Shown here: piece by piece, positions 36,715 through 40,104 of the stretch
Numbering within the stretch: the stretch's first letter is position 1
How the letters are laid out: each line of letters opens with the position of its first letter
Origin: Anaerolineae bacterium
GTDB taxonomy: Bacteria; Chloroflexota; Anaerolineae; DUEN01
Assembly (NCBI GenBank): GCA_025060615.1
Contig: JANXBS010000026.1
Span: forward strand, 1 to 47,923
Length of the DNA stretch: 47,923 nt
Direction of reading: 5' to 3'
Notes under the pieces: generated by a model
Databases searched by the model: none
Told to the model about the DNA's origin: nothing
The model's input: the letters and a program-made list of their open reading frames with translations, nothing else
Program-made: the position numbers and the translations under genes

Positions 36715-36723
36715 AAAAGAGAA

Positions 36724-36761
36724 CGCCGGAAGGCACTCTCCCCCAAAAGTGCCCTCCGGCG
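36724..36761 (-). terminator. Hairpin terminator, best suited to the minus-strand transcript
   Basis: The arms at 36724-36737 and 36748-36761 pair in 13 of 14 positions. Read on the minus strand the stem is followed by TTCTCTTTTTTAT, a good U-tract, so it should end the transcript of the c-di-AMP receptor and B12-binding genes. On the plus strand only a poor T-run follows, but it could also help to end the glycosyltransferase mRNA. Confidence 0.75.
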
Positions 36762-36955: not shown

Positions 36956-37321
36956 CTAATCCACCCCGGGCGTTTCCGAGCCATCGAACACGACGTCAAA
37001 GAATCCCAGCTTGCGAGCCCGCTCGGCGATGGGCGGAGTGCTACCGAAGGCGAACCGCACCCCGGCTGAGCGCAGCTCGTCAGCTGCCTCGGCGAATTCG
37101 CTGAGGAGCCGCTCACCCGTTTCCGGCCTCAGCCGATAGGATACGCCGATCAAGTCAGCGCGATGCTCACGGGCGGCAGCCAGCACCCGTTCGATAGGCA
37201 CCGCCGGCCCTAGAAAGATCGTCTCCCAGCCGACCTGCTCGGCCAGGCGCAAGAAGTTCACCACGCCAGCTACGTGGACGCACTCGCCGAGCGCAGCAGC
37301 GACAACGGTTTTACGTGTCAT
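36956..37321 (-). CDS. Small stand-alone cobalamin (B12)-binding-domain protein
   Basis: A 121-residue Rossmann-like protein resembling B12-binding domains: TVVAAALGECVHVAGVVNFLRL, then GWETIFLGPAVPIERV and ADLIGVSYRL. The His in HVAG matches the cobalt-ligating HxxG, but the DxH signature reads Cys-Val-His, so the Asp that normally supports the His is replaced. The ATG at 37321 is chosen because it fits the domain start and has GAGG upstream; a longer frame to 37483 overlaps the receptor gene. It lies 16 nt downstream of that gene, so one transcript. It lacks the helical cap domain of methyltransferase corrinoid proteins. A partner enzyme is not visible next to it. Confidence 0.75.
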   Translation of the reverse strand: MTRKTVVAAALGECVHVAGVVNFLRLAEQVGWETIFLGPAVPIERVLAAAREHRADLIGVSYRLRPETGERLLSEFAEAADELRSAGVRFAFGSTPPIAERARKLGFFDVVFDGSETPGVD

Positions 37322-37337: not shown

Positions 37338-38030
37338 TTATATTTGAACAAACCGCGACGATTCCAGCACGAATACAGTGGCGCCATGCGCAGGGCCGCC
37401 CGTCTCGGACGGAACTGCTGCCTCATGAGGCCGACAGTGGGCCTGGATGAGGCCGAGCACTTCGTCCACCTTCCCCGCTTCAACCCCGGTGAGAAGCGTC
37501 ACGTTGCCCCGGCGCCAGAACGCGCCTGCGGTATTGATGCGTGTCACCCGATGGCCGGCTGCTAGCAAGGCCCGGCTTACCGACTCAGCGTCGTCGCTGT
37601 GCACGATGGCAAGGATCAGGTTCATCGCTTCGACTCCTCCTCTAGCCTCCTGGCAGGGAGTTGCCTCTTCCATAGCGGAGGGGCTATCACTGCCTGATAA
37701 GCGCGCAAAGCGTTTCACCGGAAAGCTGAACACCGTAGCCCCTCCGATGACCACCTCTAGCGGGGTCACCACCGACATGGGCATGTGTGTAGCTTCAGTG
37801 CCGAACAGCATGGGATTCACCCATCCTCGGCGAGTTTGACAAGTGGCCCGGATAGTGGATAGGACATCTTCTACACGTTGATCCTCAATCCCGGTCAGGA
37901 TTGTCACGTTGCCCCGAGCCAGGAAGCCTCCTGTGGTATGGATACGGGTCACGCGAAACCCTTGTGCGTTCAGCCGTTCACACAGGAGATCGGCGTCTTC
38001 GTCCTGAACAATGGCAAGCAGCAACTGCAT
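37338..38030 (-). CDS. Tandem c-di-AMP receptor protein (two fused DarA/PstA-like P-II domains)
   Basis: A 230-residue protein with two copies of the cyclic-di-AMP receptor domain. Copy 1 (about 1-110): LLLAIVQDEDADLL, FRVTRIHTTGGFLARGNVT, GIEDQRVEDVL, then GGATVFSFPVKRF. Copy 2 (from about residue 136): LILAIVHSDDAES, HRVTRINTAGAFWRRGNVT, GVEAGKVDEVL, then HGATVFVLESSRF. These match the 109-residue DarA/PstA proteins, which bind c-di-AMP as trimers. A linker of about 25 residues joins them. The start at 38030 has AGGGGG 6 nt upstream (an ATG at 38036 is too close). An internal ATG at 37625 has its own GAGGAGG, so copy 2 could also be made separately. A c-di-AMP riboswitch lies in the leader. 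Confidence 0.9.
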   Translation of the reverse strand: MQLLLAIVQDEDADLLCERLNAQGFRVTRIHTTGGFLARGNVTILTGIEDQRVEDVLSTIRATCQTRRGWVNPMLFGTEATHMPMSVVTPLEVVIGGATVFSFPVKRFARLSGSDSPSAMEEATPCQEARGGVEAMNLILAIVHSDDAESVSRALLAAGHRVTRINTAGAFWRRGNVTLLTGVEAGKVDEVLGLIQAHCRPHEAAVPSETGGPAHGATVFVLESSRFVQI

Positions 38031-38091
38031 AGTCATCCCCCCTGCTATTGAGCAAAGTTTTTTGTCCTGTCAAGGATCACATGAATAGCCG

Positions 38092-38117
38092 TAAGAAAGC
38101 AAGGGCCTCTCCCTTGC
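38092..38117 (-). terminator. Possible riboswitch-linked terminator hairpin
   Basis: On the minus strand, GCAAGGG and CCCTTGC (7 bp, 5-nt loop) are followed by TTTCTT, about 60 nt before the receptor start. Placed between the c-di-AMP aptamer and the gene, it may be the expression platform. The U-tract is modest. Confidence 0.5.
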
Positions 38118-38307
38118 GCTTCACAGGCAAACCAGTAAATATTCACTGGCCTGCGCCCTCGCTGACGAAGGCGATTGTCAGGCTTTACCTAGCTTCTTGG
38201 CCAACTTATTCGCTTGGCTGTTGGCGATGCAAGCGAATGGGAGAGACAGGAAGGGCAAAAGCGTGACACGCGGGATGCGCCGCCGGCCGCGGATGGCCAC
38301 GTGCGCT

Positions 38308-38442
38308 CCTGCCTCTTCCGACTGCCTGCGAGGTTAGCTGACGGGTTCGGGCCGGAAGATGAGCCCTACGCATGCAGCAAGACTGCCATGCGATTCACCC
38401 CAAGCATTGGTTCCCCCGCCTTCCCACGGAAGTTCGGCTTGC
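38308..38442 (-). ncRNA. Cyclic di-AMP riboswitch (ydaO/yuaA class) in the leader of the receptor gene
   Basis: Read on the minus strand, the conserved blocks of the ydaO/yuaA aptamer appear in order: AGCCGAAC (near 38439), GGCGGGGGAACC (38420-38409), GGGGTGAATC (38401-38392), TAGGG then CCCGAACCCGTCAGC followed by TAACCTCGCAGGC (38351-38324), and GGAAGAGG near the end. This is the arrangement I know from actinobacterial rpf leaders. Ligand binding by this class usually turns expression off. It starts right after a sigma70-like promoter and lies upstream of the tandem c-di-AMP receptor gene. A leader of about 280 nt separates aptamer and gene, with a 9-bp hairpin at 38208-38238 and a possible terminator at 38099-38117. 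Exact borders are estimates. Confidence 0.88.
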
Positions 38443-38448
38443 CAAGAG

Positions 38449-38477
38449 AGTATAGCGTATAAAGCTACAAAGGTCAA
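38449..38477 (-). promoter_or_regulatory. Sigma70-type promoter of the riboswitch transcript
   Basis: On the minus strand -35 TTGACC (38477-38472), a 17-nt spacer and -10 TATACT (38454-38449). The start is expected near 38442, exactly where the aptamer begins. Confidence 0.8.
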
Positions 38478-38506: not shown

Positions 38507-38860
38507 TTAGGGGCTTCGCTTTTCCAGCCCCAGCACACGCACGACTGGGACGACAAAGAGCAGGCCAGTGTGATGGCGCGTAAAATCGCCAATGACTTGT
38601 TCGGTCGCTGCAATCACCTTTTCGACCGTCGCCTCATCTGGGATCACGCTGAACAATACGCGGTGATGCGACTCCCGGCTGGCTAGGAGATCACGCAAAG
38701 AGGGGATCAGCGGCAAATCATCGCGCATGGCACCTCGCAGATGCCCTAGGCCAGTGCTCTCCAGGATTGTCACCCCGGGGACCCCCGTCTCCTCCCAGGC
38801 GTCCAGGACCGCTGAACACTGCTCTAGGCTGTCCAACACGAAAACCACGAGATAAGCCAT
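38507..38860 (-). CDS. P-II-like signal-transduction protein
   Basis: A 117-residue protein with a P-II/CutA-like ferredoxin fold pattern: YLVVFVLDSLEQCSAVLDAWEETGVPGVTILES at the start, a variable loop in the middle and HRVLFSVIPDEATVEKVIAATEQVIGDF, then GLLFVVPVVRVLG. The ATG at 38860 has AGGGG upstream; the longer open frame would run into the antiporter gene. It follows the antiporter by 23 nt, so it is probably its cytoplasmic regulator, a pairing known for P-II-like proteins and transporters. The uridylylated Tyr of GlnB is not evident. The ligand is unknown; an adenine nucleotide is an inference. Confidence 0.8.
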   Translation of the reverse strand: MAYLVVFVLDSLEQCSAVLDAWEETGVPGVTILESTGLGHLRGAMRDDLPLIPSLRDLLASRESHHRVLFSVIPDEATVEKVIAATEQVIGDFTRHHTGLLFVVPVVRVLGLEKRSP

Positions 38861-38883: not shown

Positions 38884-40104
38884 TCAGGATGTGGTCGCTG
38901 AGACCTCGCTGGGCTTCCACTTGCCCGCCGCCGGGTAAAGCGCGCGCAGCAGTAGCGGCGTCACCAACGTGGTGACCAGCACCATGAGCACCACCGTTGC
39001 GAACACCTCCGGCTTCACCAGGCCAGCTCCCATCGTCACCGAGGCAACGATGAGCCCGACTTCGCCGCGAGAGATCATGCCCACCCCCAGCCGCAGGGCC
39101 TCCCCGAAAGAAAACCCGCCGATCCACGCTCCAGAGCCACATCCGATGATCTTAGAAATGATAGCCGCGCCTATGATGACTAAGGCAAACGGCAGCCCTC
39201 TCAGCCCCAGCACTCGGGCATCCGTCTCCAGGCCGATGCTCACAAAGAACACTGGGACCAGCCAAGCATAAGCCAGCGTGTGCATGCGCGTCTCAATGAC
39301 CTGTCGGATCATCGTCCGACCAAACAGTAAGCCGGCCAGAAAGGCTCCGGTGATGGCAGCGACACCTCCTAGCGCCTCAGCCGCCCAGGCATATAGCAGC
39401 CCAACGACGATGGCTAGGGCCATCTCTCCTTCGCTGATGGGCAGCTGGGCGACAATCGCGCTTAGGCGCAAGAGGAGCTGCCCCCCCAAGGCAAGCGCCA
39501 GCACAAAGAACAGCAGCATCCTCATTAGTGTCCAGAAGATAGCCAGCACGCTGCCAGTCCCTCCGGTCAGCGCCATAGCAAATGAAAGGAGCAAAACCAC
39601 CAACACGTCATCCGCCACTGCTGCACCTAACAGGCCCATGCCCACCCTGCTGCGCAGCACTCCCAGCTCCATTAGGGTCTGGGCCGAAATGCTGACACTA
39701 GTGGCTGCCAACGCCAAGCCGAAGAAGAAGCCCTCCTTTAGGCTATAGCCGAAGGGCAGCCCGGCAATCACCGCCAGTACGATGGGGGTAATCACCCCCA
39801 TGATCCCCGCTAACATGGCCGGCCGGCCGGCATGTTTCATCGTGTCCAGGTCCACCTCCAGCCCGGCGATGAACATCAAAAACAGCACCCCCAAATGGGC
39901 CAAATCATGGATGGTTTCTCCCAGGTGTTCGCTGCTGAAGACAGACCAGTGCAGCATATCCAAGGCCGTGGGTCCTAGGAGAAGGCCAGCTAACAGCTCT
40001 CCCAATACGGCTGGCTGGCCCAGGCGCGCGCTCACATAGCCGGTTCCTTTAGCTGCCACGATAATGAGCGTTAAAGCCAATAAGAGCTGTAGGAATGGGT
40101 CCAT
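38884..40104 (-). CDS. CPA2-family cation:proton antiporter (membrane domain only)
   Basis: A 406-residue integral membrane protein with about 12-13 helices. Family markers are LGELLAGLLLGP, HLGVLFLMFIAGLEVDL, the ion-binding Asp pair in GAAVADDVLVV, and ISRGEVGLIVAS in the last third. It exchanges Na+ or K+ for protons across the inner membrane. KefB/KefC relatives carry a C-terminal RCK domain; here the protein ends soon after the membrane part, and a P-II-like gene follows instead, suggesting control in trans. It begins 17 nt after the aldolase gene in the same operon. Confidence 0.93.
   Translation of the reverse strand: MDPFLQLLLALTLIIVAAKGTGYVSARLGQPAVLGELLAGLLLGPTALDMLHWSVFSSEHLGETIHDLAHLGVLFLMFIAGLEVDLDTMKHAGRPAMLAGIMGVITPIVLAVIAGLPFGYSLKEGFFFGLALAATSVSISAQTLMELGVLRSRVGMGLLGAAVADDVLVVLLLSFAMALTGGTGSVLAIFWTLMRMLLFFVLALALGGQLLLRLSAIVAQLPISEGEMALAIVVGLLYAWAAEALGGVAAITGAFLAGLLFGRTMIRQVIETRMHTLAYAWLVPVFFVSIGLETDARVLGLRGLPFALVIIGAAIISKIIGCGSGAWIGGFSFGEALRLGVGMISRGEVGLIVASVTMGAGLVKPEVFATVVLMVLVTTLVTPLLLRALYPAAGKWKPSEVSATTS

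What the first reader, a model, noticed from the sequence alone, without database searches (positions are those of the whole stretch)
37338..38477. c-di-AMP read twice in one transcript: riboswitch in front of a double c-di-AMP receptor protein
A sigma70-type promoter, then a ydaO/yuaA-class aptamer, then a gene with two DarA/PstA-like c-di-AMP receptor domains. In known cases this riboswitch controls cell-wall hydrolases or K+/osmolyte transport. Here the product is itself a predicted receptor for the same signal. This would form an RNA-protein feedback loop: high c-di-AMP would lower synthesis of its own buffer or effector. I am not aware of this architecture being described.
Basis: partly seen in the sequence, partly recalled or inferred. 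Interest (0 to 1): 0.9.

Follow-up and report, generated by a model that had tools for sequence, protein, structure and literature searches.

The report
Riboswitch before its own signal's receptor
A bacterial gene for a receptor of the signal molecule c-di-AMP is preceded by an RNA switch that senses the same molecule; this pairing turns up at seven other places in the Chloroflexota, mostly in unrelated lineages, and related receptor genes often sit beside ion-pump genes, which hints at what this family of receptors of unknown function does.

Summary
Window 38308-38449 (-) is a c-di-AMP (ydaO/yuaA) riboswitch aptamer (RF00379, 100 bits), the only one in this 3.86-Mb Anaerolineae MAG. It starts 9 nt after a TTGACC-17-TATACT promoter and lies upstream of a 232-aa gene with two DarA/PstA c-di-AMP receptor domains.

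It is not a one-off. Among about 205 such riboswitches located in Chloroflexota genomes, eight lie directly upstream of DarA genes; under 0.1 is expected by chance. On a DarA tree the label needs six changes. Five of the seven sister leaders carry an intrinsic terminator between aptamer and gene; three control a DarA pair that mirrors the window's two domains. None of the 23 Bacillota genomes holding both showed it.

A riboswitch on a stand-alone DarA receptor is the new variant; I found no report of it.

Refinements: the double ORF family has a conserved internal ribosome-binding site before domain 2, so a separate short receptor is probably made too; neighbours are repeatedly cation antiporters or exchangers. 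Weak point: the window's own 271-nt leader has no clean terminator, so control of the receptor there is inferred.

The parts
38449..38477 (-). sigma-70-type promoter TTGACC-17-TATACT; -10 box ends 9 nt before aptamer P1
   Evidence: 10/12 match, 0 of 300 shuffles as good
38308..38449 (-). c-di-AMP riboswitch aptamer (RF00379, ydaO/yuaA class)
   Evidence: 100 bits, E 1.2e-22, full-length model; only copy in genome
38178..38300 (-). 40-codon GTG-start ORF in the leader (SD AGGAG), no relatives found; leader peptide or remnant
   Evidence: sequence; only its own copies and weak chance matches (best E 0.25) by tblastn in all fetched loci
38250..38320 (-). strong hairpin just after the aptamer, -36.8 kcal/mol, covers the SD of the short ORF; no U-tract
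   Evidence: z -2.6
38090..38117 (-). terminator-like hairpin GCAAGGGAGAGGCCCTTGC + TTTCTTACG; its 3' arm can pair with aptamer nt 38429-38413 (candidate antiterminator)
   Evidence: 2 found against 2.0 expected; chance of the pairing 0.02-0.05
37338..38036 (-). double DarA gene, 232 aa (domain 1 at 37701-38030, domain 2 at 37338-37625)
37623..37643 (-). internal Shine-Dalgarno AGAGGAGGAG and ATG (37625) that would start domain 2 alone
   Evidence: conserved in 15 of 17 double-DarA ORFs against 7.9% background
36956..37321 (-). truncated remnant (121 of 553 aa) of a B12-binding / MutE-like gene that follows double DarA in relatives
36716..36760 (-). strong terminator (GCCGGAGGGCACT...AGTGCCTTCCGGC, T-rich tail) closing the unit
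   Evidence: sequence
38507..38860 (-). PII-like protein, 117 aa, upstream of the riboswitch
   Evidence: PF00543, 28.9 bits, cut-off 25; homologue between CPA2 and DarA pair in G029 (L063)
38884..40104 (-). CPA2-type cation/proton antiporter, 406 aa, no RCK domain detected

Best explanation
The window holds a c-di-AMP-controlled transcription unit: promoter, RF00379 aptamer, leader, double-DarA gene, end of a decayed B12-type gene, terminator. The aptamer most likely works as an OFF switch, as in the studied members of its class, so the DarA receptor is made when c-di-AMP is low. DarA itself binds c-di-AMP, so the signal acts twice in the same direction: when c-di-AMP falls, more receptor is made and a larger share of it is ligand-free. 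I propose that the apo form is the active one and that its targets are cation antiporters/exchangers such as the CPA2 antiporter encoded just upstream, as GlnK acts on AmtB. The ORF probably yields two products, the D1-D2 fusion and D2 alone from an internal start, able to form mixed PII-type trimers. Shown: aptamer, receptor domains, recurrence of the riboswitch-DarA arrangement, terminators in sister leaders, internal SD, neighbour pattern. Inferred: OFF logic, control of the receptor in this window, ligand binding, apo-active form, target.
For: Aptamer and receptor assignments. Residues that contact c-di-AMP in PstA (T28, F36, N41, G47, T97, F99; PMC4475381) are kept in both domains. The riboswitch lies directly upstream, on the same strand, of DarA in G151, G397, G495, G509, G530, G551 and G572, as in the window; in G495, G572 and G530 of a DarA pair. 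Intrinsic terminators between aptamer and darA in 5 of 7. Six label changes on a 118-domain tree. Internal SD p 3e-15 uncorrected for kinship. Cation transport neighbours of double or paired DarA: CPA2 (window, L063), CPA1 (L147, L150, L155), Na/Ca exchanger (L057, L147), ArsB/CitMHS permease (L149), TrkH (L153), MgtE (L259, L260). Apo-DarA is harmful in B. subtilis lacking c-di-AMP (PMC7857571).
Against: In the window itself no terminator lies within 75 nt of the aptamer; the nearest terminator-like hairpin is about 190 nt downstream and of a kind found as often in shuffles. A 40-codon ORF precedes the receptor gene. None of the 13 close double-DarA homologues outside the window has the riboswitch upstream. 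Not every DarA neighbourhood contains an ion transporter (L055, L056, L146, L148, L154). Domain 2 lacks the B-loop and one glycine of the GGA kink, so its binding is uncertain. Whether the genome encodes a diadenylate cyclase was not tested.
Confidence: 0.62

Rival explanations
1. The riboswitch controls only the short leader ORF (or is left over from another target gene); transcription stops at 38117-38090 and the double DarA gene has a separate promoter.
For: 271-nt gap, short ORF with a good SD, terminator-like hairpin 60 nt before darA, TTGACA at about 38075 (sequence).
Against: Aptamer, promoter and darA are co-oriented with nothing recognisable between them; the short ORF has no relatives; seven other loci link the riboswitch to DarA, two of them also with a small ORF between (L258, L262); no promoter of 9/12 or better lies in the gap.
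Confidence: 0.2
2. DarA made from this unit is a c-di-AMP buffer: the riboswitch closes a negative feedback loop that sets the amount of free signal, with no protein target.
For: The arrangement allows it; no function of DarA is established (PMC7857571).
Against: Repeated placement of DarA genes beside cation antiporters and exchangers; a sink repressed by its own ligand would fall just when the ligand is in excess; PII relatives act on partner proteins.
Confidence: 0.12
3. The co-occurrence is chance or a relic: an intact but irrelevant riboswitch inserted into a CPA2/PII/DarA neighbourhood.
For: Double-DarA sister loci lack the riboswitch.
Against: 100-bit full-length aptamer with a well-placed promoter; eight loci against an expectation under 0.1; spread over six places of the DarA tree.
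Confidence: 0.06

Closest known systems
ktrAB (yuaA) and kimA (ydaO) of Bacillus subtilis
   Same: One c-di-AMP riboswitch and a c-di-AMP-binding product of the same transcript; signal acts on RNA and protein (PMC5573677, PMC10284832).
   Different: The product there is a transporter or its RCK subunit; here it is a stand-alone PII-like receptor of family PF06153.
DarA / PstA (PF06153, NF058593)
   Same: Both domains match the family; core c-di-AMP contacts kept.
   Different: Known DarA are single-domain, and none is reported under riboswitch control in the literature I could search; here two domains in one ORF, the second without B-loop and with an internal start.
RF00379 c-di-AMP riboswitch
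   Same: Full aptamer, promoter-proximal 5' leader.
   Different: New kind of regulated gene; the window's expression platform is not a recognisable adjacent terminator.
GlnK-AmtB and SbtB-SbtA (PII proteins acting on a transporter)
   Same: PII-fold regulator encoded beside a transporter.
   Different: Analogy only (own knowledge); interaction not tested, other ligand and transporter families.

Membership tests
RF00379 c-di-AMP riboswitch | covariance score over the gathering cut-off, full consensus structure | tested here: met
   100 bits against 38, model 1-134, almost no broken pairs
RF00379 c-di-AMP riboswitch | conserved core GCCGAA, GGGGGAACC, GGGGUGAAUC, UAGGG, CCCGUCAGCUAACCUCGCAGGC | tested here: met
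   alignment
RF00379 c-di-AMP riboswitch | binding of two c-di-AMP molecules and genetic OFF response | not testable with these tools
   needs in-line probing and a reporter
RF00379 c-di-AMP riboswitch | terminator or RBS-masking expression platform next to the aptamer | tested here: inconclusive
   window: candidate 190 nt away, antiterminator pairing p 0.02-0.05; met in 5 of 7 sister leaders
DarA/PstA cyclic di-AMP receptor (PF06153) | profile match, domain 1 | tested here: met
   PF06153 108.8 bits; NF058593 over cut-off
DarA/PstA cyclic di-AMP receptor (PF06153) | profile match, domain 2 | tested here: met
   61.9 bits, cut-off 27, but only profile 1-74
DarA/PstA cyclic di-AMP receptor (PF06153) | c-di-AMP contacts T28, GGFL 34-37, N41, G47, GGA 94-96, F99 | tested here: inconclusive
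   all present in domain 1; domain 2 has GAFW and HGA but keeps T28, F36, N41, G47, F99
DarA/PstA cyclic di-AMP receptor (PF06153) | homotrimer that binds three c-di-AMP | not testable with these tools
   monomer model only: pLDDT 70, best PDB matches PstA/DarA
classical PII (PF00543) | match over gathering score and Walker-like B-loop | tested here: not met
   double-DarA protein 24.1 bits against 25
KtrA-type dual control | riboswitch-controlled c-di-AMP-binding RCK_C transporter subunit | tested here: not met
   no RCK domain in the product; works like it, is not it

The most novel reading that the evidence does not exclude
In Chloroflexota, DarA-type receptors are dedicated c-di-AMP subunits of cation antiporters, made as a nested pair (fusion plus free short form) from one ORF, and repeatedly placed under a c-di-AMP riboswitch, so that one second messenger sets both the amount and the ligand state of a PII-type transport regulator. 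This would give DarA, a receptor without a known function, a first target class.
Probability: 0.35. Interest if true: 0.75.

Novelty: new variant of a known kind. Interest (0 to 1): 0.58.

Why it matters
DarA/PstA has several crystal structures but no known function (PMC7857571 states this for B. subtilis). A recurrent riboswitch-DarA unit shows that cells tie the amount of this receptor to its own ligand, and the operon partners name concrete candidates (CPA1/CPA2 antiporters, Na/Ca exchangers, MgtE) to test. It extends the KtrA/KimA principle of one messenger reading RNA and protein of the same gene to a stand-alone signalling protein, in a phylum where c-di-AMP has hardly been studied.

Tried and rejected
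Terminator scan of the window leader: no adjacent terminator; the long-range antiterminator pairing is only weakly above chance. Idea that the short ORF is the end of a cell-wall hydrolase: no Pfam match, no relatives. Idea that the two domains are an accidental fusion: rejected, since single-frame double DarA proteins occur in at least ten related genera. Same arrangement in Bacillota: 71 genomes searched, 23 with both elements, none adjacent. Synonymous-codon shuffles gave a weaker internal-SD signal than the position control, because the linker residues themselves are E/G/R-rich; I report the position control and note this. Nelson 2013 and Block 2010 are not held in the library, so their target lists could not be checked.

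Full report
Check of the observation. The RNA claim is right: one Rfam hit in the window, RF00379 at 38308-38449 on the minus strand, 100 bits, E 1.2e-22, full length. It is the only RF00379 in the 3.86-Mb genome. A TTGACC-17-TATACT promoter ends 9 nt before P1; no shuffle of the region gave as good a site. The protein claim is right: the 232-aa ORF 37338-38036 has two PF06153 domains and passes the NCBI DarA equivalog cut-off; phmmer and Foldseek both put PstA/DarA first. The genome has one further, single-domain DarA on another contig.

The two domains. Domain 1 keeps all c-di-AMP contacts listed in PMC4475381. Domain 2 keeps T28, F36, N41, G47 and F99 but has lost the 30-residue B-loop and one glycine of the GGA kink. 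Full-length-plus-short DarA pairs are common in the phylum as two neighbouring genes. In the window and in at least ten related genera (G028, G033, G065, G092, G111, G130, G179, G192, G202, G388) they are one open frame (more divergent two-domain frames in G136, G236, G308, G291, G117). In these frames a Shine-Dalgarno sequence precedes the methionine of domain 2: 15 of 17 reach -6.5 kcal/mol with the anti-SD, against 7.9% of other positions in the same ORFs. The rows are related, so the p value of 3e-15 is too optimistic; the linkers are however very diverged in length and sequence. A stricter control that shuffles synonymous codons gives a weaker signal. I read this as a nested gene: fusion plus free domain 2.

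Is the riboswitch-receptor arrangement more than one case? In 396 genomes of the class, 67 have RF00379. I fetched the surroundings of essentially all of these riboswitches and searched them with a DarA profile: two had DarA, the window and G151. In 301 genomes of the phylum, about 48 outside the class have RF00379; comparing coordinates with PF06153 in the same genomes gave six more: G397, G495, G509, G530, G551, G572. That is eight among about 205 riboswitches. With two to four DarA genes per 4 Mb, a same-strand DarA start within 400 nt of a random site is expected in well under 0.1 cases in total (back-of-envelope, inference). On a tree of 118 full-length DarA domains the riboswitch label needs six changes; G495/G572 are one clade, the window lies inside the double-DarA clade, G151 among ordinary Anaerolineae DarA, G397 in a clade with a Ktedonobacter-labelled MAG (a 109-column tree, many weak forks). 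In Bacillota, 71 genomes were searched; 23 genomes with both elements had none adjacent.

How the sister leaders look. All eight have a TTGA-type promoter 9-41 nt before P1 (weakest in L259, 8/12) and an RF00379 aptamer of 65-106 bits. L258 (G397), L261 (G530), L262 (G551), L263 (G509) and L264 (G151) have an intrinsic terminator right after the aptamer and then SD and darA, the usual layout of a transcriptional OFF switch (in L258 and L262 a small ORF comes between); L259 and L260 (G495, G572), very GC-rich, do not. G495 and G572 read riboswitch-DarA-DarA', G530 riboswitch-DarA'-DarA.

The window leader. Between aptamer and darA lie 271 nt: a strong hairpin that hides the SD of a 40-codon ORF, a further hairpin, and a terminator-like hairpin 38117-38099. 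In the minimum-energy fold the aptamer strand 38429-38413 pairs with the terminator's 3' arm, which is what an antiterminator would do, but pairing this strong is found in 2-5% of random controls. So control of darA is inferred here and is better supported in the sister loci.

Neighbourhood and function. Upstream of the riboswitch are a CPA2 antiporter without RCK domain and a PII-like protein; G029 has the same CPA2-PII-like-DarA-DarA' order in one operon. Other double-DarA genes lie beside CPA1 antiporters (L147, L150, L155), Na/Ca exchangers (L057 with a PII-like gene, L147), an ArsB/CitMHS permease with a protein bearing CBS domains (L149), and TrkH (L153); the riboswitch-DarA pairs of G495/G572 lie near MgtE and an iron-dependent repressor. 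Six or seven of 14 close homologues have such a gene within about 2.5 kb. A second theme is a B12-binding/MutE-like protein (L148, L149, L155) and octopine-type dehydrogenase (L149, L153); the window keeps only the first 121 residues of the former, with a deletion scar.

Mechanism. c-di-AMP riboswitches studied so far switch genes off at high c-di-AMP (PMC5573677). DarA would then be made at low c-di-AMP, and the little signal present would leave it mostly ligand-free. In B. subtilis the ligand-free DarA is the harmful form, and DarB acts as apo protein (PMC7857571). Both levels thus push the same way: low c-di-AMP gives much apo-DarA. A regulator of cation antiport would fit a signal that reports potassium. 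The alternative, a buffer loop, remains possible.

Comparison with the known. PMC5573677 says that c-di-AMP controls a process by binding a protein (KtrA) and the corresponding mRNA riboswitch; PMC10284832 says the same of KimA. The principle claimed as new is therefore known. What is new, as far as the held literature shows, is its use on the PII-like DarA receptor and its repeated appearance in Chloroflexota. The older target lists (Nelson 2013, Block 2010) could not be opened.

Verdict. Real, recurrent, a new variant of a known kind; interesting mainly because it makes the unknown function of DarA testable.

Noticed in passing
window 36956-37321 (-): Truncated remnant of a 553-aa B12-binding + MutE-like protein (77% identical over residues 4-120, then a jump to residues 187-204) that follows double DarA in G065, G111 and G130.
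   Followed up: partly
L005, L006, L009, L011, L018: In several Anaerolineae the c-di-AMP riboswitch directly precedes a nucleotidyltransferase (PF00483), in L005, L006 and L011 followed by what looks like a CDP-alcohol phosphatidyltransferase, resembling di-myo-inositol-phosphate osmolyte synthesis; possibly a riboswitch target not yet described.
   Followed up: partly
L021 145-1257 (-); L149 1171-2286 (-); L153: Octopine-type dehydrogenase genes are a direct riboswitch target (G009) and also neighbours of double DarA (G065, G202), tying an opine-like product to c-di-AMP.
   Followed up: partly
L063 4468-6700 (-): Operon CPA2 antiporter - PII-like - DarA - short DarA in G029, the window's gene order with two separate DarA genes and no riboswitch.
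   Followed up: yes
L149 5194-7391 (+): A 295-aa protein with a PII-like N-terminus (34% identical to the window's PII-like protein) and CBS domains encoded with an ArsB/CitMHS-type permease, divergent from double DarA.
   Followed up: no
L068 4347-5201 (+) (G032:C1:1632346-1633191): A DarA gene followed by three partial copies (profile 63-108) at a 174-nt period, as if the end of the gene had been tandemly duplicated.
   Followed up: no
L259, L260: Riboswitch-DarA-DarA' next to an MgtE magnesium transporter and a DtxR/FeoA-type iron-dependent repressor, order conserved in two genomes of one family.
   Followed up: partly
L258 2386-2643 (+): A cysteine-rich 85-aa ORF lies between riboswitch and DarA in G397; no Pfam match.
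   Followed up: no
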